Origin: Bacillus gaemokensis
GTDB lineage: Bacteria; Bacillota; Bacilli; Bacillales; Bacillaceae_G
Assembly (NCBI RefSeq): GCF_001590835.1
Contig: NZ_LTAQ01000023.1
Location: 101,868 to 165,867, forward strand
Reading direction: 5' to 3'
DNA: 64,000 nt
The position numbers and the translations under genes are program-made. The notes beneath the pieces were generated by a model. That model had not been told where the DNA came from and did no database searches. It saw only the letters and a program-made list of their open reading frames with translations. Within the stretch, counting starts at the first letter, position 1; each line of letters starts with the position of its first letter. Shown here piece by piece: positions 7,709 through 24,060 of this stretch.

Positions 7709-8179
7709 TTATTGAGTAATCTTAAATGGTTGGCCATGTAAAAATGTTGTTTCCCCGTTCTTTAGGGTAAGCTTCATAACCGCAACATAAGTATCTGGGG
7801 TATATACAGCGGTAATTGGTGTTTTAAATTCAGCGATTCCTGTCCATACGCCAGAATCCTGAATAGTTATATATCTTTGAAGTGAAGTTTCTGCATCCCC
7901 CAAGTCATGAATTCTAAAAATTTTCATCACAGCACTTTCCCCAGGCTCAAGTCCAAATGACATTCTAAATTCTTCACCTTGTTTCAAATCACCTACACGA
8001 GTGATATCTGGTGAGTAGTTTGCATTGTGATGGACATGTTGCCAAGATTTAAGTCCCCATTCATCATTGAACGGATCAGAGTAAGCCGCAGCAGCTTGTG
8101 TAGTTGGTTTAATCATTTCAACAGCTGTGAAACCGCCAAGTGTTAACGCTCCGATAATTGCTACTTTTCCTAATTTCAT
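7709..8179 (-). CDS. secreted DUF5065-like protein, copy 1
   Basis: This 156-residue protein has a signal peptide (MKLGKVAIIGALTLGGFTAV, cleavage near QAAAA). The mature domain shows W-x-HVHHNANYSPD, a GEEF strand, KIFRI, Y-T-P-D-TYVAVMKL and a C-terminal HGQPFKIT, matching the two paralogues at 19.75-20.75 kb. I assign it to the DUF5065 family of Bacillus, whose role is unknown. The ATG at 8179 is preferred over a TTG six codons upstream, because GGAGG precedes it. It is exported and probably a beta-rich small protein. Confidence 0.7.
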   Translation of the reverse strand: MKLGKVAIIGALTLGGFTAVEMIKPTTQAAAAYSDPFNDEWGLKSWQHVHHNANYSPDITRVGDLKQGEEFRMSFGLEPGESAVMKIFRIHDLGDAETSLQRYITIQDSGVWTGIAEFKTPITAVYTPDTYVAVMKLTLKNGETTFLHGQPFKITQ

Positions 8180-8427
8180 AATATGTTTTTCCTCCAATAT
8201 AAATTTAGTAGTTAGATCAATTCCATAATAAGTACAGTTTGCACAATGAAAAAGATTATTTGGTCAATTCAATTATACATGGAAATAATAACAATTAAAG
8301 TGTTTTTATTACAAATTTTTATTCTTTACGTAAAAAAAGAAATTTATCCCATTTCTTAATTTTTAATAGATTCTTTGTTATGGGGTTGTACCATATCTTG
8401 TTGTCGAGCGCTTTTAAACTTTATCCT

Positions 8428-9126
8428 TTATTTATAAAGAAATTGGAATAAATATACAAATACTCCTGTAGAATCTTCTTTTAATTCTACTTTTTTAATC
8501 AAATTTTGTGTTGTAGGACCGAAATTACCATTGGCAGTAGCATCATCTAATCCTTCTTCATATTGAATCGCGTACATTAACGCCTTTTGAACATCACGAG
8601 AGTAATGACCATCACAAGGCATGTAGAAGAAACCAGCACGGTTGATATATTTGTTGTTTAACCATTGTTGAATACTTCGAACTTTTGAGCTACCTCCAGT
8701 GATTAATACATAAGCGTCCATGGTTAAGAGTGCTTTAAATAATTTTGGATTTACAGCACCATCTGCTGTACAGCCTAAATCTTTCTGCATAGAAGTAATT
8801 GCAGACTGTGTACCTGGCCCATACGTTCCTGTAATCCCACCTGGTCCATATCCTTTACAATATAAAGCAGCTTGAATAATTTTTACAATATTTGCATTCG
8901 TATTAGATGTTGTGCTAATTGGACATTTTTTTGCAACTGTTTGTAATGTAGTAGGGCCAAAACTAGTAGATGTATTTGTAATCCCAATTTCTAATTGTAA
9001 TGCTTATGTTAAAGCACCCATGGTTGACCAACCTGTTTTCCCATTTTCTTCGATTGCAGTATAACCTGCTTTACCTTTATACGTGCTATTTACCCATTGT
9101 TGAGCTTTTAAGACCATTTGATCCAT
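8428..9126 (-). pseudogene. broken peptidoglycan-binding / glycoside-hydrolase-like protein
   Basis: The gene starts at ATG 9126 after an AGAGG site. It encodes repeated alpha-helical modules of the peptidoglycan-binding domain type (MVLKAQQWVNSTYKG, TSFGPTTLQT, NGNFGPTTQNL). Codon 41 is TAA (9004-9006), and the flanking residues GALT-ALQLE show the frame is otherwise intact. The frame also ends early at 8428 after FVYLFQ, where related cereus-group proteins continue into a large C-terminal catalytic domain (from memory, DUF1906-like). It is therefore interrupted and 3'-truncated. A second N-terminal remnant of the same gene lies at 19253. Confidence 0.75.
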
Positions 9127-11957: not shown

Positions 11958-12293
11958 TTATCGGTAAATCTTAAAGCTATCTGTTTTATTGTATTTAGCT
12001 GCTCCACCAGCAGATAATTTTCCGTATACACGATAGTCACCCGGAAAATTATCTGTGATGTTGAATGATCTTGTTACATTATTTGCAAAGCTACCTAATA
12101 AAGTATCAGTTGTAGACCATTCTCCGTTAACAAGACGTTGTAAGTAAATTGTATAGCTCCATGTGTAACCCGGTGCATTGTTCACTTGTGTGAAATCTAC
12201 TGTTGTAGCTCCAGAACTGTAATAACTCGCATCCGTCTAACCGCTTACCTGTGAAGTATAACCATTATAACCACCATGAATATAACATGCCAG
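11958..12293 (-). pseudogene. broken paralogue of the beta-rich protein at 12316
   Basis: The frame encodes a relative of the neighbouring gene: YSSGATTVDFTQVNNAPG, TIYLQRLVNGEWSTTDT, GSFANNVTRSFNITDN and a C-terminal FKIYR all align. Two lesions are visible. The start is CTG (12291-12293) where the sister gene has ATG, although the GAGGAGG site is still in place. The conserved tryptophan codon after VSG is TAG. A short in-frame ATG (12185) could give a 75-residue C-terminal piece, but has no good ribosome site. Confidence 0.75.
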
Positions 12294-12315
12294 TTTGTTT
12301 CCTCCTCAAAGATTT

Positions 12316-12636
12316 TTAGCGGTAAACATTAAAAGCATCTGTATAGTTTGTGCTACCGCCATATACACCTTTAACACGATATAGACCAGGTAAATTATCC
12401 GTAATATTGAATGATCTTGTTACATTGTTTTTAAAGCTACCAGATGCTGTGTCAGTAGTATTCCATGTACCATTTGCATTACGCTGTAAATAAATTGTAT
12501 AATATACTGTCGCACCCGGAACATTGTTCACTTGAGTAAAATCTACTGACGTAGCACCAGAACCATAAGAATTTGCATCTGTCCAACCACTTACTGTAGA
12601 TGTACTTCCAGATGTGTTATAAACATAACTTGCCAT
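12316..12636 (-). CDS. small beta-rich protein of unknown function
   Basis: This 106-residue protein is rich in Ser, Thr, Asn, Gly and Tyr (MASYVYNTSGSTSTVSGWTD) and lacks a signal peptide. It looks like one immunoglobulin-like or lectin-like beta-sandwich. A damaged tandem paralogue lies immediately downstream. The start is preceded by GAGGAAATAAC. I do not recognise the family. Its place next to the phage lysis genes suggests lysogenic cargo released on lysis, but this is inference only. Confidence 0.65.
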   Translation of the reverse strand: MASYVYNTSGSTSTVSGWTDANSYGSGATSVDFTQVNNVPGATVYYTIYLQRNANGTWNTTDTASGSFKNNVTRSFNITDNLPGLYRVKGVYGGSTNYTDAFNVYR

Positions 12637-17241: not shown

Positions 17242-17964
17242 TTATGCTGTTGCATTCTTCTTATTTAAAAGTTTATCTGCCACTCTTACTGCATCTTCTA
17301 ACTGATTCGTAATCGCTAAGTATTGAGGAGCTGTTATTCGTTTCAGTGCATGCTTTTTTTTATAATTATTCATTTTCATTTTTAAATTTGTTCTATATGC
17401 TCTGTTATAGACAGATCTAAATACTCTCCATGCTTTTTGGAAGCTAATACCTTCATTCAAAGCCAAGAGCTGAATCATTTTATTTAAACGTTGCTGTAGA
17501 CAACTCTCTGTATTAAGAGTATCAAGACTATTAATACGATGTTCTACAGTTCTTACTTGTTTCTCTAATTGTTGAATTATAAGTAAAATCTCTACCGGTA
17601 TTTTTTCACAATTCCAATTACTCTCTTTTACATGTTTAAATTCTTTTAAAAATTTAATCTTCACTTTTAAAGCTTCTGCATTTATATCTCCCATTGTTAC
17701 AAATGCAAATGCACTTTCTGTGAGTGTAAACTTAGGGTATTCTATTCCTTTAATGGTATAACTCGACTTAATAAAATTAGCTTTTGAAAAATCACTTTCC
17801 CCAGCTTCGTTTAATTTTTGAATCTGATTTACAATAGTATGTATTACAGATTTATGTTCTTCCTTCATCATGTAAGCAATTATTAAACTATCAGTAACAA
17901 GCTTATTTCCTTCCATAAATACCAAATTGCCAACTATATCTTCTCTCTTTTTTTCAACACCCAT
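17242..17964 (-). CDS. Rha family phage regulatory protein with ORF6C domain
   Basis: This 240-residue protein has an N-terminal pRha domain (about 12-110; KLVTDSLIIAYMMKEEHKSVIHTI, SSYTIKGIEYPKFTLTESAFAFVTMG). Its C-terminal helical domain (about 135-240; LNKMIQLLALNEGISFQKAWRVFRSVYNRAYRTNLKMKMNNYKK) is of the ORF6C antirepressor kind. Rha proteins regulate phage development and interfere with related phages. The start follows GGAGGGG by six bases. It lies just downstream of the Cro-like gene. Confidence 0.85.
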   Translation of the reverse strand: MGVEKKREDIVGNLVFMEGNKLVTDSLIIAYMMKEEHKSVIHTIVNQIQKLNEAGESDFSKANFIKSSYTIKGIEYPKFTLTESAFAFVTMGDINAEALKVKIKFLKEFKHVKESNWNCEKIPVEILLIIQQLEKQVRTVEHRINSLDTLNTESCLQQRLNKMIQLLALNEGISFQKAWRVFRSVYNRAYRTNLKMKMNNYKKKHALKRITAPQYLAITNQLEDAVRVADKLLNKKNATA

Positions 17965-18008
17965 ATATATCCCCTCCACTTTTATAAATCACAGGTTTAC
18001 TTAAACTA

Positions 18009-18384: not shown

Positions 18385-18513
18385 TCACTGGGCTATCTTT
18401 TTTTCTATATATGTTTTGGAAAAACATGCTTTTAGAATTTCCTCAGTGTTAATTTTATTTCCCTCTTTTAACCATAGCTTTACTACTTCTTTAGCTAATT
18501 CTTGTTTATTCAT
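18385..18513 (-). CDS. small protein, phage early region
   Basis: A 42-residue protein beginning MNKQELAKEVVKLWLKEGNKI. The start is chosen because GGGGGAATTGGG precedes ATG 18513. It lies between the peptide-precursor gene and the Cro-like gene. An upstream dyad TTGTGA-N5-TCACAA (about 18541-18557) could be an operator. In arbitrium phages a small transcript (aimX) sits at this place, so this is a candidate. The function is unknown. Confidence 0.5.
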   Translation of the reverse strand: MNKQELAKEVVKLWLKEGNKINTEEILKACFSKTYIEKKIAQ

Positions 18514-18610: not shown

Positions 18611-18644
18611 GAATGACATCGTTCTAATCAAAACGATGTCATTC
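18611..18644. terminator. 13-bp perfect hairpin after the peptide gene
   Basis: GAATGACATCGTT pairs exactly with AACGATGTCATTC around an eight-base loop, 32 bases past the stop of the peptide precursor. There is no T-run, so it could be an operator or an attenuator rather than a simple terminator. Confidence 0.55.
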
Positions 18645-18675: not shown

Positions 18676-18813
18676 TTACCAACCACCACCTGGATCAGTC
18701 ATTTGAACTAAATGACTAACCTCATATTGTTTTGAATAATCTGTACTTTCCTCTTCTAGTACACATATGGATACTCCTAATAAAACAACTAGGAATATTA
18801 AAATTTTTTTCAA
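18676..18813 (-). CDS. exported peptide-pheromone precursor, AimP/Phr-like
   Basis: This 45-residue precursor starts at TTG 18813, directly behind GAGGTGG. It has a basic start and hydrophobic export segment (KKILIFLVVLLGVSICVL), an acidic middle (EEESTDYSKQYE) and a C-terminal tail, VQMTDPGGGW. That is the layout of Phr and AimP precursors, which are secreted and trimmed to a C-terminal penta- or hexapeptide; here the predicted signal is DPGGGW. An AimR-type receptor lies 3.5 kb away on the same strand. The assignment rests on architecture and context, not on a database match. The gene is too short to be found by routine calling and has a non-ATG start. Confidence 0.6.
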   Translation of the reverse strand: MKKILIFLVVLLGVSICVLEEESTDYSKQYEVSHLVQMTDPGGGW

Positions 18814-19043
18814 TTTTTCCACCTCATTTTAAATAATTACTTCCTTTTCTTTTATAACTAAAATATTTAACCATATTCATTTTTCTTTCATTAAATTTTA
18901 CGAATTTAAATTTGTTATAAGAAACAGAGTACTCACCTATTATATTTATACTCCTCATATTCTAAAGAATAAAAGATTTATAGTTTTACCTACCCAATTT
19001 CTTCTCCACTATAAATCTCTATATGAATATTTTACCACAAAAT

Positions 19044-19057
19044 AGAACCTGTGTTCT
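19044..19057. promoter_or_regulatory. LexA (DinR) SOS box candidate
   Basis: GAAC-CTGT-GTTC matches the Gram-positive LexA core GAAC-N4-GTTC exactly. On the minus strand a possible -10, TAAAAT, follows about 15 bases downstream, so the box could control transcription toward the peptide precursor and the phage early genes. Confidence 0.6.
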
Positions 19058-19252
19058 AGTTTTAATTTAAAATATCACATAAATTTATTGTTATTTAACA
19101 TACGGAAAAATGAAATTTATTCAGGAATAAGAAAACACTACGGAATATAGCAGTAAACTAATTACAAGAAGAACAACAAAATTTCTTCTCATCATTTAGA
19201 TCATAGCTCAGGAAAATTGGGCTACATTCACATAAAAGAAAGAGGTATTTTA

Positions 19253-19377
19253 ATGGTCTTAAAAGCCCAACAATGGGTAAATAGCACGTATAAAGATAGA
19301 GCGGGCTATAAAAAATCGAAGAAAATCCAAATCCTCACTGGGGAGACTTTGAGCCAAATGCATATATTCTTTATGTA
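19253..19377 (+). pseudogene. remnant of a peptidoglycan-binding protein gene
   Basis: ATG 19253 opens MVLKAQQWVNSTYKDRAGY, almost identical to the start of the broken gene at 9126. After about 20 codons similarity is lost. A different frame then gives NPHWGDFEPNAYILYV before a stop. This looks like an internally deleted copy that joins the N-terminus of one domain to the C-terminus of another, on the opposite strand to the first copy. Confidence 0.55.
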
Positions 19378-19754
19378 ATTTAATTAATACGATCTATTAT
19401 CATCAATAGCATAAAAAAGAAGTATCTATCTAGATACTTCTTTTGATTCTAGTACAAATATATAATAAAAAATGAAAATTCTCTTAAAAAGTGGATGAAG
19501 CAGGTTTTGGTGCAAGAACTTCAGAACAATTATAAGGCACCTTTGAACTACCTATTTTTCTTTTACCCAATTTCATTTATAAAACACTATAATATGCAAA
19601 TTTCTTTTAATTGTCACTATTTTCATACTTATTCACCTTATTTACATTTTAAAAACACGATATAATAATACACAGTATTCTTACCAAATGCTATTTTTGT
19701 TTTAATATTATTTTTCACCTAATTAATCTTCATAATAACAGGAGGTTTTTGAAC

Positions 19755-20231
19755 ATGGAAAAGCTAAAATCCGTGGCACTTATCGGAGCATTAACGATCG
19801 GTAGTTTTACAACAATCGGGGTATTCTCAACACCAAACCAAGCATTAGCTGCAACATCAAGCACTGTACAGAAAGCATCTCCTGTAGTAGACGACTGGAG
19901 ATGGCAATCCTTTTTCCTACTTCACCACAATGCAGATTACCGAGCTGAGTTAGCTGTAGGAACACTAAGACACGGCGATACATTTGATGTTACATCTGAA
20001 GTTGGTGGCATCGACAACGGTATTATCAAAATATACCGTATAAATTATATAGGCGATGGTCTAGATGAGTTACAGCGATTCAAAACAATCCAAGGTGGAG
20101 AAGCAGGTCACCACTTCTATAGCAGATTCACTACACCTATCACAACTGTTTATACACCTGGAGATTATGTAGCTGTACTAAAAGTAGGCGATCATTACTA
20201 TTACGGTGGTAAGTTCCAAATTACGAAATAA
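19755..20231 (+). CDS. secreted DUF5065-like protein, copy 2
   Basis: This is a 158-residue protein counted from ATG 19755 after GGAGGTTTTTGAAC. It has a signal peptide (MEKLKSVALIGALTIGSFTT, cleavage near ALAAT) and a mature domain with DDWRWQSFFLLHHNADYRAEL, LRHGDTFDV, IIKIYRI, HFYSRFTTPIT, TPGDYVAVLKVG and YYYGGKFQI. It is about two-thirds identical by eye to the next gene and forms a tandem pair with it. It is exported. The function of the family is unknown. Confidence 0.75.
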   Translation: MEKLKSVALIGALTIGSFTTIGVFSTPNQALAATSSTVQKASPVVDDWRWQSFFLLHHNADYRAELAVGTLRHGDTFDVTSEVGGIDNGIIKIYRINYIGDGLDELQRFKTIQGGEAGHHFYSRFTTPITTVYTPGDYVAVLKVGDHYYYGGKFQITK

Positions 20232-20294
20232 ACAGTATTCCTATCAATTCCTACACTATATAAATGTCAAAATTAACTACAAGGAGAATTTTCT

Positions 20295-20747
20295 ATGAAA
20301 AAACTAGGAACTATAGCTTTAGTTGGAGCATTAACACTTGGCGGTTTTACAGCAGCCGGAGTATTTACAGAACCTCAACATGCATCAGCTGCTAAAGGGG
20401 CATATGATGACTGGAGATGGCAAGAGTTTTTCTTAATTCACCATAACGCAGACTACCGACCAGAGTTAGCGGTAGGTCACCTTAGACATGGTGATACTTT
20501 TGACATTACTACTCAAGTTAATGGGACTGATAAAGGTATAATTAAACTATATCGAATCGATTATAGTGACAGCGATTATGGCGACCTACAACGCTACAAA
20601 ACAATTCAACCATCAGATACAGGCGAGCGCTATTACAGTAGATTTACTACACCTATTACTAGTGCCTACGAGCCAGGCAGTTACGTAGCTGTATTAAAAG
20701 TAGGTGAAGACTACTATTACGGTGGTTCATTCAAAATTTCAAGATAA
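20295..20747 (+). CDS. secreted DUF5065-like protein, copy 3
   Basis: This 150-residue protein has a signal peptide (MKKLGTIALVGALTLGGFTA, cleavage near ASAAK). The mature region DDWRWQEFFLIHHNADYRPEL, LRHGDTFDI, IIKLYRIDY, RYYSRFTTPIT, EPGSYVAVLKVG and YYYGGSFKI parallels copy 2. The ATG follows AAGGAGAATTTTCT. It is probably co-transcribed with copy 2 and followed by a strong terminator. The two genes look like a recent local duplication, more distant from the copy at 7.7 kb. Confidence 0.75.
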   Translation: MKKLGTIALVGALTLGGFTAAGVFTEPQHASAAKGAYDDWRWQEFFLIHHNADYRPELAVGHLRHGDTFDITTQVNGTDKGIIKLYRIDYSDSDYGDLQRYKTIQPSDTGERYYSRFTTPITSAYEPGSYVAVLKVGEDYYYGGSFKISR

Positions 20748-20776
20748 TTGAAACTGACTCTCATGACATAGAAATG

Positions 20777-20807
20777 CCCCCTACATTCACTTGTGGGGGG
20801 TTTTTTT
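20777..20807 (+). terminator. terminator of the DUF5065-like pair
   Basis: CCCCCTACA pairs with TGTGGGGGG and is followed by seven T on the plus strand. Confidence 0.85.
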
Positions 20808-21390
20808 AACTCAAGCATAACCATAAGTGTTATAAAAAGTAAGAGTCCCCATTATATAGGTTTCTTTGTAACCACAGAAATTTTTTTAGCGATATTGATG
20901 AGATTACAAAAATAATTTCTGGAGAAGGTCAATGATTAAGGTAATACGAATGTAAACTCATATACTAAAGTTTATATTTATTTTAAAACATTACTTGTTT
21001 ACTCTTAAATTAATTTATTTCATTGCTTTCTATGATTAACTTGCAATTACTACAACTTTGTATTCCCAAAAATAAAGAAGCTTCTTTTTTTGGCAATGAT
21101 GAAGGAAAATCAATGTTGTTTGGATATGATTCTCTCCCCTATTAGGAAAGTCGCACAATATAGTTTGAACGTTTTTACACATGATGCTCTTGTAAATAAA
21201 AAATTCAAAGTATGATTTCCAGTCCTCGTTTCCATGCAAATCCTCGTTTATACATTGCTACATTAATTTATATTTGGTTAATCATGTTATCTTTTGACTA
21301 CACTTTATTAATTCCTGCTTTATTAATTTTCTCTCAAATCTAAGTAAATCTGAGATTTATAATTTTTTTTGTAAAAATAAGATACATCAC

Positions 21391-21420
21391 TTGTGGTAAA
21401 CACATTGTTTACTTTATAAT
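21391..21420 (+). promoter_or_regulatory. promoter with operator of the CI-like repressor
   Basis: TTGTGG (21391-21396), an 18-base spacer and TATAAT (21415-21420). The spacer carries GTAAAC-N5-GTTTAC (21396-21412), an inverted repeat with the same TAAAC-N5-GTTTA core as the Cro-like promoter. This suggests autoregulation and mutual control. Confidence 0.75.
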
Positions 21421-21461
21421 TTAGTAGGCACCAGATAATTTCTATAAAAGGGGGTTGAAAA

Positions 21462-21812
21462 ATGATCGGAGAAATAATTAAAAAGCTAAGAAAAGAAAAG
21501 AATATAACTCAGGAACAATTAGGTAATGTTATTGGTGTTTCTAAAATGGCTATATCTTATTTTGAAAAAGGAAAAAAAGCCCCTGGTCGTGAAACATTAG
21601 AAAAAATAGCAGACTATTTTAATATTACAACTGATTACCTTTTAGGTAGATCAGATGATCCAGAACTTAATGAACACGAATCTAAGATCGTAACTGAAGA
21701 AGGAAATAATATTCTAAAGTTAATAGAAACTCTTCCTAAAGAAGAACGTCAAAAAGCATGGGAACAATTAGAAATGTATGTTAGCTATATAAAATCCAAA
21801 AAAAACAGCTAA
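21462..21812 (+). CDS. CI-like helix-turn-helix repressor
   Basis: This 116-residue XRE-family protein has an N-terminal helix-turn-helix (ITQEQLGNVIGVSKMAISYFEKGKKAPGRETLEKIADYFNITTDYLLGRSDDP). A C-terminal helical tail (LKLIETLPKEERQKAWEQLEMYVSYI) probably dimerises. This is the usual small phage repressor of Bacillus. The ATG follows AAAGGGGGTTG. It points away from the phage early genes, as expected for a lysogeny repressor, and a terminator follows. Confidence 0.85.
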   Translation: MIGEIIKKLRKEKNITQEQLGNVIGVSKMAISYFEKGKKAPGRETLEKIADYFNITTDYLLGRSDDPELNEHESKIVTEEGNNILKLIETLPKEERQKAWEQLEMYVSYIKSKKNS

Positions 21813-21820
21813 ACAAATAA

Positions 21821-21845
21821 CTGCCTCATTAGGCAGCTTTTTTAT
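21821..21845 (+). terminator. terminator of the CI-like gene
   Basis: CTGCCT-cat-AGGCAG hairpin followed by seven T, just past the repressor stop codon. Confidence 0.85.
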
Positions 21846-21984
21846 TAGCTATTTTTTAATTCATTCTGCTTTTATTAAGAAACTATATATAAACATATGT
21901 TTTTAGCACTCGCTTATATATTTAAATATTTTTTACTCTTGAAATATTCACCACTAAATATTCTTTTGGGCTGTTTAAAGTAAA

Positions 21985-22218
21985 TTAAAGCGCGATACTA
22001 TCTACCTCTTTTAACCACCTAGTTATCATCTTTTGTTTAAATTGCGTTAGCTTGGTACAGCAAGAATAATAGATCATTCTAGTTTCATTATAAGTGTGGT
22101 CCCACACATCAATGAAACGGTTAAATATATAGTAACTACAACTAATAGTCCTAGCAATTAGAATTTCTAGTGATGTGTTTGGATAGATACGGAATTCATA
22201 ATCCTTATTTACTAACAA
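21985..22218 (-). pseudogene. TnpB (IS200/IS605 OrfB) N-terminal fragment
   Basis: The reading LVNKDYEFRIYPNTSLEILIARTISCSYYIFNRFIDVW...WLKEVDSIAL matches the N-terminal part of IS200/IS605 TnpB proteins. The frame stops after about 77 codons, where TnpB normally continues for another 300 residues to its RuvC nuclease site. It begins at a TTG with no proper ribosome site. It lies 56 bases downstream of the AimR-type gene, where a peptide gene would be expected. Confidence 0.7.
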
Positions 22219-22274
22219 TAGTCACACCTTCATATTTTGAGGAGAAGAACTTCTGTCGGAAGAGCTAAAAACAA

Positions 22275-23408
22275 TCAATCCAGACCTAAATATCTTTTAG
22301 GTAACTGCGAGTAAAAAATATTTCCCGTCTCTTCACACATTTCTAACGATTTTTTTATTAAATTTTTATCTTCTCTAGCTAAGCCCAAATACAATGTTTG
22401 AAAATCAGTAAGTTCTCCCATTTTATTTTCTAAATGTATTAGTAACTCTTCTGCTTCTTTATTTTTTCCTTGCTTTATTTTTAAATATGCCATTTCTGCA
22501 CAATGGATCTCCTCTTCTAAGCTATCAATATTTTGTCCCCAATAAATAACCAGAAAATTCAATGTATTCTTGATGAGTTGTTTCTTTTTTGTCATTTTAA
22601 TGTCAGAAACATATTCCAACGTTTCAAAACTTTTCTCTAAAAAGAACTTTGCAGTTTTATAATTTTCAAAAACATAAGATTCCCCCATTTTCAATAGCGC
22701 ATTTACCTTTGGAATTATAAAAAATGGATTACATTCAAACGCCTCTAAAATTTCATTCCCCATTCTTCTCGTTTTATTTATATTTCCTCTTTGTAAGGAA
22801 ATTACACAAATAGCCTCTTTAAATCTAATAGTAAAGCTATCTCTAATAAATTTATTTTTGATTCTTTTTATTTCCAATTCAATTTCTTGTAACCGCTCAA
22901 ACAATAATCGATAATTTCCTAAATGATACAACATTTGACACATTAAAAGCTCTGTTAATATTTTCATCTCTAATGTCTTAGAACTTCTATGTTTTTTTAC
23001 AATTAAATTATATAATTCTTTAAATTCCCATTGCTCTGTATACATTTTATAAATTAAATCGTATACACTAGCCCACTCTTTATTACACGTAGCATCAGAA
23101 TTCAATTCTCTATCCACGACTTCTTTTAGCAATCCAAAATCTCCATGTAAAGAAAAATATTCCATAGCTTCACGTAAATTTCTTAATTTGTTTTTTTCTA
23201 TATATCTTTTCATCAAATTTGTTTGTATAGCATTATCCTTATACAAACAGTTTAATGTTTTAGAAAAATAACAAAACCTCATTTGTGTCCTTCCATTTAA
23301 AACATCCGATACAACACTTTGAGTTACGCCCCAATATCTTGCTAATTCTTTATTTGTAATTTTTGCTACGTACAAATCATCGTTAATTTTTTTTAACAAG
23401 TTCTCCAT
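22275..23408 (-). CDS. aimR: AimR family lysis-lysogeny peptide receptor
   Basis: This 377-residue protein has an N-terminal helix-turn-helix (about 15-50; ITNKELARYWGVTQSVVSDVLNGRTQMRF). A long all-helical TPR-like superhelix follows, with NLREAMEYFSLHGDFGLLKEVVDRELNS, KEWASVYDLIYKMYTEQ, EMKILTELLMCQML and repeats to the C-terminus. Size and layout match AimR receptors of arbitrium phages, which bind a short secreted peptide and change phage gene expression and lysogeny. ATG 23408 follows AGGAGGAACAAG. The normal adjacent peptide gene is missing; a TnpB fragment sits there instead. An alternative is another RRNPP-type regulator. Confidence 0.75.
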   Translation of the reverse strand: MENLLKKINDDLYVAKITNKELARYWGVTQSVVSDVLNGRTQMRFCYFSKTLNCLYKDNAIQTNLMKRYIEKNKLRNLREAMEYFSLHGDFGLLKEVVDRELNSDATCNKEWASVYDLIYKMYTEQWEFKELYNLIVKKHRSSKTLEMKILTELLMCQMLYHLGNYRLLFERLQEIELEIKRIKNKFIRDSFTIRFKEAICVISLQRGNINKTRRMGNEILEAFECNPFFIIPKVNALLKMGESYVFENYKTAKFFLEKSFETLEYVSDIKMTKKKQLIKNTLNFLVIYWGQNIDSLEEEIHCAEMAYLKIKQGKNKEAEELLIHLENKMGELTDFQTLYLGLAREDKNLIKKSLEMCEETGNIFYSQLPKRYLGLD

Positions 23409-24060
23409 CTTGTTCCTCCTAGAAACAAAAAGATACATATCCTATGCTTACGAAATAAAAGCATGTTTCCAAAGTAAATTTCATTAAATAAATCTTTAAA
23501 ATTCTAAAATATATACGCACTTAGATGTAAAGTTACAACCAGTCTATCATTTTAAAATCATTAAGCTATCATTTTTAAAAAATATGCATAATTTCATATC
23601 TCGAATATACAGTATTAAAGATATGAAATTATGCATATTTATAGAGAATGTCTAAACATAGATTTCACAAGACAGGAACAAGCCTCTAAAACGCCTATGT
23701 ATGACCAGGGGAAAAACATTAAAAAACGTAGCAGAACCGTCTTTGCTTATTGAGTTGGGATAGCATACCTTTATCCTACATATCAGCGATACCAGAAAGG
23801 GACTTTACTTTCGATAGCAATAATCTTACTAACACCACTTGTTTTTTCCATTAGGGGTTAAGCTATCGAAATAAAATACTTTTTTATCGTATAACGCTAT
23901 ACTAAAAACTTTTAATCACCCACAACACCGAACTCTAGTTCGCAAATGTTCTTTGTTGAAATTATATCAAATATGTGAAAGGGATGTAAAATAATATCCC
24001 ATTAAGTAACAACTACGGTTAGGTTGTTTACTGAAAATATAAAATTCTATACCTCCAGAT
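23409..24060. other. upstream region of the receptor gene, mostly non-coding
   Basis: It holds the 22-bp inverted repeat (23580-23640). An open stretch of 40 codons (23631-23753, plus strand, beginning MHIYRECLNIDFTRQEQ) follows, whose coding look I cannot assign and which has no ribosome site. The rest is AT-rich up to the IS3 remnant. Confidence 0.45.
23580..23640. repeat. perfect 22-bp inverted repeat with 17-base loop
   Basis: Arms at 23580-23601 and 23619-23640 are exact reverse complements (core ATGCATAATTTCATATCT). It lies about 170 bases upstream of the AimR-type start codon. There is no GC-rich stem or T-run of a normal terminator. Confidence 0.8.

What the first reader, a model, noticed from the sequence alone, without database searches (positions are those of the whole stretch)
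18676..23408. Arbitrium-like peptide signalling module split apart in a decayed phage
An AimR-type receptor (22275-23408) and a 45-residue exported peptide precursor ending VQMTDPGGGW (18676-18813) lie on the same strand, 3.5 kb apart, in a phage remnant with Cro/CI-like regulators. In known arbitrium phages aimP directly follows aimR. Here that place holds a TnpB fragment, and the CI-like and DUF5065-like genes lie between. The predicted signal DPGGGW would be a distinct peptide code. If real, the residual element may still listen or talk to related phages.
Basis: partly seen in the sequence, partly recalled or inferred. Interest (0 to 1): 0.85.

Follow-up and report, generated by a model that had tools for sequence, protein, structure and literature searches.

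The report
Phage signalling pair in two remnants
A bacterial chromosome carries the receptor gene and the signal-peptide gene of a known phage messaging system a few kilobases apart, probably as two half-lost copies, so an apparently silent 'listener' may have a matching 'talker' nearby; whether it still works is untested.

Summary
In detail: a genuine AimR (22275-23408, minus strand; NCBIfam 401.9 bits, cut-off 70) and an exported-peptide ORF ending VQMTDPGGGW (18676-18822, minus) lie 3.45 kb apart. DPGGGW is not a new code: 36 of 78 IMG/VR loci with that 3' end carry a signal-type aimP ending in it, 32 directly behind an aimR, 4 near the locus edge. The receptor falls with DPGGGW, DPGTGW and DPSGW receptors, outside the DPGGGW crown; at 28 mapped peptide-contact positions it shares 19-22 with DPGGGW receptors, at most 18 with others. 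'One module split apart' is the weaker reading. aimP keeps both its normal outer neighbours, the promoter element that relatives carry upstream of aimR and Cro/Rha, with aimR and CI missing between; aimR and CI stand together elsewhere, with aimP missing. Modest traces of a second CI-Cro operator stretch lie beside CI; a second terminator could not be shown homologous. I read two partial copies with reciprocal loss. Each gene is open exactly once, so a circuit could still work in trans; expression and binding are untested. New variant of a known kind.

The parts
22275..23408 (-). aimR-type receptor gene, open, 377 aa (an in-frame ATG at 23438 would add 10 aa); copy B
   Evidence: NF038310 401.9 bits, PF22871 183.2 bits, phrog_1728 426.1 bits; tree
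23930..23941 (-). LexA-box-like GAAC-N4-GTTC about 520 nt upstream of aimR; possible remnant of an aimR promoter in copy B
   Evidence: 2 sites in the window, 0.70 expected, 17 of 100 shuffles have at least 2; leader profile E 4.7; 3 of 300 shuffles score as well: suggestive only
21985..22218 (-). N-terminal fragment of an IS200/IS605-type TnpB in the place where aimP and the small ORF sit in relatives
   Evidence: NF038281 67.4 bits over model positions 1-75 of 360
21813..21840 (.). terminator-like hairpin next to the CI stop
   Evidence: folds at -11.9 kcal/mol within 21813-21882; no sequence match of that stretch to the same place in relatives
21462..21812 (+). CI-like HTH repressor, open, 116 aa; copy B
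   Evidence: 79% identical to the CI of L062; Pfam HTH_3
21339..21453 (.). CI operator O1 (GTAAAC-N5-GTTTAC) followed by a probable decayed second operator and -10 region; copy B
   Evidence: nhmmer 'ig' profile E 1.4e-8, model 13-135; the stretch beyond O1 alone is matched by 6 and 2 of 1000 shuffles and 2 of 500
19749..20747 (+). two DUF5065 genes (19749-20231, 20295-20747) lying between the two copies
   Evidence: PF16723 E 7.9e-43 and 2.3e-42
19252..19310 (+). piece of a peptidoglycan-binding-type gene; inverted repeat partner at 9060-9118
   Evidence: 59 nt, 92% complementary; family read by eye from the translation and from the Pfam hit of the neighbouring 8428-8790 ORF
19015..19063 (-). 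LexA-box-like promoter element (GAACACAGGTTC then TGTGGTAAAAT) in front of aimP; in relatives it lies roughly 300-490 nt upstream of aimR; copy A
   Evidence: nhmmer E 3e-7, 0 of 300 shuffles; blastn to 15 loci, 14 of them with an AimR, 11 distinct contigs
18676..18822 (-). aimP: exported precursor ending VQMTDPGGGW (45 aa from TTG 18813, 48 aa from GTG 18822); copy A
   Evidence: nhmmer 'post' hit 18827-18370 E 4.2e-42
18613..18642 (-). conserved hairpin directly behind aimP (ATGACATCGT...ACGATGTCAT)
18385..18513 (-). small ORF in the aimX position, 42 aa from ATG 18513; copy A
   Evidence: 41% over 46 aa to the small ORF behind aimP in L034 and L023
18009..18209 (-). Cro-like HTH gene (60 aa from TTG 18191 by homology, 66 aa from ATG 18209) with its promoter and operator O2 just upstream; copy A
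   Evidence: 72% over 60 aa to L062 and L083; 'ig' profile hit 18277-17972, E 2.5e-51
17242..17979 (-). Rha-type phage antirepressor, 245 aa; copy A
   Evidence: TIGR02681 67.7 bits over a cut-off of 45.95; PF09669

Best explanation
The region carries two partial copies of one kind of arbitrium immunity region, from two related prophages or from a duplication, that lost genes reciprocally. Copy B (about 23.9 to 21.3 kb, read leftwards) keeps aimR and the CI-like repressor; its aimP and small ORF are gone, with a TnpB fragment in their place, and its Cro is gone or decayed. Copy A (about 19.06 to 17.2 kb) keeps the LexA-box-like promoter element that stands upstream of aimR in relatives, then aimP, the conserved hairpin, the small ORF, Cro and Rha; its aimR and CI are gone. 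Shown by sequence: the genes, their family and code, the order, and the promoter element in front of aimP. Modestly supported: a second, decayed operator stretch beside CI. Inferred: AimP is exported and trimmed to DPGGGW, re-imported and bound by the AimR from copy B, which would act in trans on the aimP/small-ORF region of copy A, while CI acts on operators of both copies. The element could then still talk (DPGGGW, possibly SOS-driven) and listen to prophages that use the same code.
For: AimR equivalog score 401.9 bits. 36 of 78 loci with the DPGGGW 3' end have a signal-type aimP, 32 directly behind aimR, 4 near the locus edge. Order aimR-aimP-small ORF-CI(reverse)-Cro in relatives. Window AimR inside a 37-row clade (100/99) with codes DPGGGW, DPGTGW, DPSGW. 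Of 28 peptide-contact positions taken from the SPbeta structure paper, 19-22 are identical to the 32 DPGGGW receptors, at most 18 to any other code. The aimR-upstream promoter element lies directly upstream of aimP (15 loci by blastn; E 3e-7; 0 of 300 shuffles), so aimP, small ORF and Cro keep their outer neighbours with aimR and CI missing between. aimR and CI keep their mutual order and orientation. The CI side continues past O1 towards a second operator (6 and 2 of 1000; 2 of 500). The stem of the hairpin behind aimP is perfect over 13 pairs (sequence).
Against: A twice-present terminator cannot be shown: the stretch beside the CI stop has no match to relatives on its own. The operator trace beside CI is short (about 0 bits in a profile of that stretch alone), the O1 trace on the Cro side weaker (20 and 49 of 1000), and the two operator stretches resemble each other little. 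The LexA-like box upstream of aimR is only suggestive. The 'post' profile also gave lesser hits elsewhere (e.g. 20258-20413, E 1.4e-4), so its E-values are optimistic. No residual aimR in front of aimP. Window AimR is outside the DPGGGW crown, on a branch long enough for the program to warn about its place, and its highest identity is to a DPGTGW receptor (46%); columns separating these two codes split 19 to 18. Its HTH keeps only 14 of 31 DPGGGW-invariant residues. Searched alone it matches no PDB AimR. No relative with the same arrangement was found, so selection since the event cannot be measured.
Confidence: 0.55

Rival explanations
1. One single module was rearranged: aimR and CI (or aimP and the small ORF) were moved within one prophage, with DUF5065 genes brought in at the same time.
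For: Each gene occurs exactly once; CI and Cro are both closest to the same relatives, L062 and L083. A second terminator cannot be shown to be homologous.
Against: aimP has the aimR-upstream promoter element on one side and Cro on the other, so aimR and CI would both have to leave from two separate places and land together in the right order and orientation. The operator trace beside CI is unexplained.
Confidence: 0.2
2. The AimR is an ordinary orphan 'eavesdropper' in a chromosomal remnant, and the nearby aimP belongs to an unrelated remnant with which it does not interact.
For: [quoted passage not shown] The AimR is on its own branch and its HTH has diverged.
Against: The precursor's code is the one used by most rows of the receptor's clade, and the contact positions match that code best. 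Two unrelated remnants with a matching code within 3.5 kb is not the simplest reading.
Confidence: 0.15
3. The genes are decaying leftovers without present function (compatible with the two-copy history).
For: No terminase, portal, capsid or tail family among the 20 ORFs of 6-26 kb scanned with Pfam; TnpB and integrase-core fragments around the region.
Against: aimR, CI, aimP, small ORF, Cro and Rha are all open; the hairpin stem is perfect.
Confidence: 0.35

Closest known systems
DPG-type arbitrium systems of Bacillus (pro)phages (phage B83 in PMC6669507, compared there with AimR clade 7, precursor ends MADPGGSVG; IMG/VR loci such as L034, L062, L083)
   Same: AimR family, exported precursor with C-terminal DPG peptide, hairpin and small ORF behind aimP, CI and Cro next to it; exact code DPGGGW in the IMG/VR loci
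   Different: aimP is 3.45 kb from aimR, behind a promoter element that otherwise lies upstream of aimR; probably two partial copies
SPbeta/phi3T arbitrium (AimR-AimP-AimX)
   Same: Receptor family by profile of the window AimR with ten relatives (PDB 7q0n, 6hp3, 5zw5); aimP and aimX-like positions
   Different: Other codes; the window keeps only 6 and 5 of 28 contact residues of SPbeta and phi3T; the window protein alone finds no PDB AimR
'Eavesdropper' AimR genes without neighbouring propeptide (PMC9765709)
   Same: A chromosomal AimR in a phage remnant with no aimP next to it
   Different: Here a matching aimP exists a few kilobases away, which a neighbour-gene test would miss

Membership tests
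Arbitrium (AimR-AimP) | Receptor of the AimR family | tested here: met
   NF038310 401.9 bits over cut-off 70; Pfam AimR 183.2 over 26.7; profile with ten relatives matches PDB AimR chains, best E 1.5e-18
Arbitrium (AimR-AimP) | aimP directly downstream of aimR | tested here: not met
   3.45 kb apart with CI and two DUF5065 genes between; adjacent in 68 of 68 scored relatives
Arbitrium (AimR-AimP) | Short precursor with export signal and C-terminal signal peptide | tested here: met
   Hydrophobic N-terminus by eye and C-terminal DPGGGW shared with 36 of 78 loci; no signal-peptide program was available
Arbitrium (AimR-AimP) | aimX-type locus behind aimP | tested here: met
   Conserved hairpin and small ORF in that place; AimX function not tested
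Arbitrium (AimR-AimP) | Placed in the lysis-lysogeny region of a temperate phage | tested here: met
   CI 79% and Cro 72% to homologues in arbitrium loci, Rha antirepressor; the phage itself is a remnant
Arbitrium (AimR-AimP) | Receptor binds its own peptide and this changes DNA binding | not testable with these tools
DPGGGW code group of AimR | Receptor groups inside the DPGGGW clade | tested here: inconclusive
   Inside the 37-row clade DPGGGW/DPGTGW/DPSGW but outside the DPGGGW crown; long branch

The most novel reading that the evidence does not exclude
Two half-copies of an arbitrium module complement each other in trans on the chromosome: an aimP under a LexA-box promoter and a receptor and repressor from the other copy form one working, SOS-triggered circuit that speaks and hears the DPGGGW code of active prophages and no longer serves a phage of its own.
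Probability: 0.15. Interest if true: 0.75.

Novelty: new variant of a known kind. Interest (0 to 1): 0.45.

Why it matters
A published survey calls a receptor a putative eavesdropper when no propeptide gene is next to it (PMC9765709). This locus shows that a matching propeptide can sit a few kilobases away, so some eavesdroppers may not be. If functional, a remnant that emits DPGGGW could, by analogy with SPbeta, push resident prophages with the same code towards lysogeny, a host-side way to damp induction. The comparison also points to LexA-box-like promoters and a conserved structured leader RNA upstream of aimR in DPG-type systems, which would tie arbitrium to DNA damage.

Tried and rejected
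Single proteins searched against viral contigs and genome contigs found nothing, so no sister strain with the same locus could be compared and the host species stays unidentified. tblastn of aimP against phages and plasmids: no match. Megablast of the region against plasmids and phages: no match. I considered the hairpin behind aimP as a code-specific AimR operator and rejected that: different codes share it and others carry different but paired stems, so it is more likely terminator-like. An inversion between the 59-nt inverted repeats would not bring aimP next to aimR, so it does not explain the order. Columns separating DPGGGW from DPGTGW receptors gave no answer over the whole protein (19 to 18). 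A search for residual aimR in front of aimP was negative. A first hairpin pattern was written with the wrong loop length and found nothing; the corrected one found 35 loci: 34 already held from the DPGGGW scan, and L202, from the same contig as AimR locus L098. Published codes: full-text searches for 'DPGGGW' and for AimR+AimP+DPG as whole words gave no paper; the key survey (Stokar-Avihail 2019) is not held, so I do not claim that the code is unpublished.
Full report
Observation. On the minus strand the window holds a 377-aa AimR (22275-23408) and a short exported-peptide ORF (18676-18822) ending VQMTDPGGGW. The receptor scores 401.9 bits against the NCBIfam AimR equivalog (cut-off 70), 183.2 against Pfam AimR and 426.1 against phrog_1728. 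Searched alone it matches no PDB AimR; a profile with ten relatives does (best E 1.5e-18). The DNA for DPGGGW-stop occurs once in the window and in none of 100 shuffles. Between the two genes lie, in order from aimR, an N-terminal TnpB fragment, a CI-like gene on the plus strand and two DUF5065 genes on the plus strand; behind aimP follow a small ORF, a Cro-like gene and a Rha antirepressor.

The code is not new. A scan of IMG/VR for DNA coding DPGGGW-stop gave 78 loci. Of these, 36 carry a 40-60-aa ORF with a hydrophobic N-terminus ending in DPGGGW; 32 of the 36 have an AimR directly upstream and in the other 4 the ORF starts fewer than 450 nt from the locus edge. Of six plasmid relatives, five have precursor ends DPGSGMG, DPGDIG, VDPGGG, QDPGGGL and MDPGGGL and one ends otherwise (L006, GRY); further codes among IMG/VR relatives include DPGTGW, DPGGGGW, DPGVGW, DPSGW, DPGTGSG and EPGGL. 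In print I saw, as passages, the B83 precursor ending MADPGGSVG, compared with AimR clade 7 (PMC6669507), and Wbeta-type ends TIKPGG/EIKPGG (PMC8878798).

Which code does the receptor belong to? A tree of 64 AimRs (only rows over 370 aa; shorter rows, L001 and L163 dropped) puts the window inside a 37-row clade (support 100/99) with DPGGGW (32), DPGTGW (3) and DPSGW (1), as its first branch (95/84 for the rest), with DPGVGW and DPGGGGW in the sister clade. The program lists the window among its long branches, whose place is unsure. Its best identity is 46%, to a DPGTGW receptor. Mapping the 28 peptide-contact residues listed for SPbeta AimR (PMC6458997, passages) through an alignment with SPbeta and phi3T, the window is identical to the 32 DPGGGW receptors at 19-22 positions (mean 20.0), to DPGGGGI/L at 18, to DPGTGW at 16-17 and to all other codes at 16 or fewer. 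Over the whole protein, columns that separate DPGGGW from DPGTGW split 19 to 18, so this is support, not proof. The HTH keeps 14 of 31 DPGGGW-invariant residues, the rest 93 of 143, so the DNA target may have changed.

Normal layout. In relatives the order is aimR, aimP, hairpin, small ORF, CI (opposite strand), Cro. An aimP-like ORF starts within 250 nt of the aimR stop in 68 of 68 distinct AimRs scored (the window, L001 and L163 left out; many loci were found through the DPGGGW pattern, which biases this count). In the seven IMG/VR loci viewed, a promoter-like TTGGGT-N17-TATAAT overlaps the end of aimR; it is missing behind the window's aimR.

Two copies rather than one split module. The main argument is the setting of aimP. 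Blastn shows that the DNA upstream of aimP (19009-19074) is an element that lies roughly 300-450 nt upstream of aimR elsewhere: 15 loci match, 14 of them with an AimR, from 11 distinct contigs. A profile of 20 aimR leaders matches only its first part here (19063-19015, E 3e-7; 0 of 300 shuffles). On its other side aimP has the hairpin, the small ORF and Cro as usual. So aimP, small ORF and Cro seem to be in place, with aimR and CI lost from between them, while aimR and CI stand together elsewhere in their usual order and orientation, with aimP and small ORF lost. Second, a profile of the CI-Cro region matches at 18277-17972 (model 82-387, E 2.5e-51) and 21453-21339 (model 13-135, E 1.4e-8), so positions 82-135 appear twice. 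The part beyond O1 on the CI side is modest by itself: 6 and 2 of 1000 shuffles, 2 of 500 in a profile of that part, at about 0 bits; the O1 trace on the Cro side is weaker, 20 and 49 of 1000. Third, a LexA-like box upstream of aimR (23930-23941) is only suggestive: E 4.7, 3 of 300 shuffles, and two such sites in 64 kb occur in 17 of 100 shuffles. A fourth argument failed: a profile of the stretch from aimR end to CI covers the small-ORF end twice (hits 18827-18370 and 21872-21625), but tested alone the stretch beside the CI stop has no match, and that profile also gave lesser hits elsewhere (for example 20258-20413, E 1.4e-4). Both blocks do end in terminator-like hairpins. Whether the copies come from two prophages or one duplication is open. 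No residual aimR was found in front of aimP.

LexA-like box. GAAC-N4-GTTC lies 277-486 nt upstream of aimR in 22 of 67 distinct loci with at least 500 nt of upstream DNA, against 0.005 per locus in mononucleotide shuffles, mostly in front of a TGTGGTAAAAT-like -10. That such boxes bind LexA in Bacillus is recalled, not tested.

How it most likely works. By analogy with SPbeta/phi3T arbitrium (passages of PMC6458997 and PMC8612738): AimP is exported, trimmed to the last six residues, imported, and binds AimR, changing its DNA binding and the expression of the small-ORF region. Here receptor and repressor would come from copy B and signal, small ORF, Cro and antirepressor from copy A. Trans action of DNA-binding proteins makes this possible; expression, binding and any effect are inferred. 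I give the two-copy reading 0.55 and a still-working trans circuit 0.15.

Comparison with print. [quoted passage not shown] This locus would be scored so, although a matching aimP is 3.45 kb away. PMC10075063 describes RRNPP systems in their simplest form as two adjacent genes (abstract start, passages). Searches for arbitrium with LexA/SOS (20 of 25 listed), with 'orphan' (11 listed) and for AimR with remnant/cheat (10 of 29 listed) showed no title on such a split pair; of these papers I opened passages of four, so this is not a claim of absence.

Limits. The host species is not identified; genome contigs gave nothing and no genome is held. The lack of structural phage genes rests on 20 ORFs scanned with Pfam, seven of them also with PHROGs (eight ORFs in all), not on a full scan.

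Noticed in passing
L034, L119, L131, L066, L137 and others, upstream of aimR: A conserved structured leader RNA with a possible three-way junction: 26 copies under 90% identity give RNAalifold -26.8 against -3.2 +/- 2.1 for 100 column shuffles, although the consensus shows few helices. 48 distinct copies were found among 106 AimR loci, repeats of a contig included; no Rfam match up to E 0.1 in 5 loci. The window's aimR and aimP show no match to this part of the leader profile. It could be an unrecorded regulatory RNA of DPG-type arbitrium systems.
   Followed up: partly
67 distinct AimR upstream regions from fetched loci: LexA-box-like GAAC-N4-GTTC with a promoter 277-486 nt upstream of aimR in 22 of 67, a possible direct link between DNA damage and arbitrium.
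   Followed up: partly
window 9060-9118 and 19252-19310: 59-nt inverted repeat (92%) made of pieces of a peptidoglycan-binding-type gene, with DUF5065 genes pointing outward on both sides (7709-8197 and 19749-20747); the 10-kb phage stretch between could in principle invert.
   Followed up: no
window 12028-12594: Two-copy 221-nt direct repeat (76%, spacing 346) overlapping two similar small ORFs; no family search was made.
   Followed up: no
window 23570-23650: 38-nt inverted repeat (84%) upstream of aimR that resembles an ATGCATAATTGCATAT-like stretch seen in the aimR leaders of relatives (by eye).
   Followed up: no
L001 and L163: AimR genes interrupted by a stop or split between frames; L001 keeps a DPG-type aimP directly behind it.
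   Followed up: no
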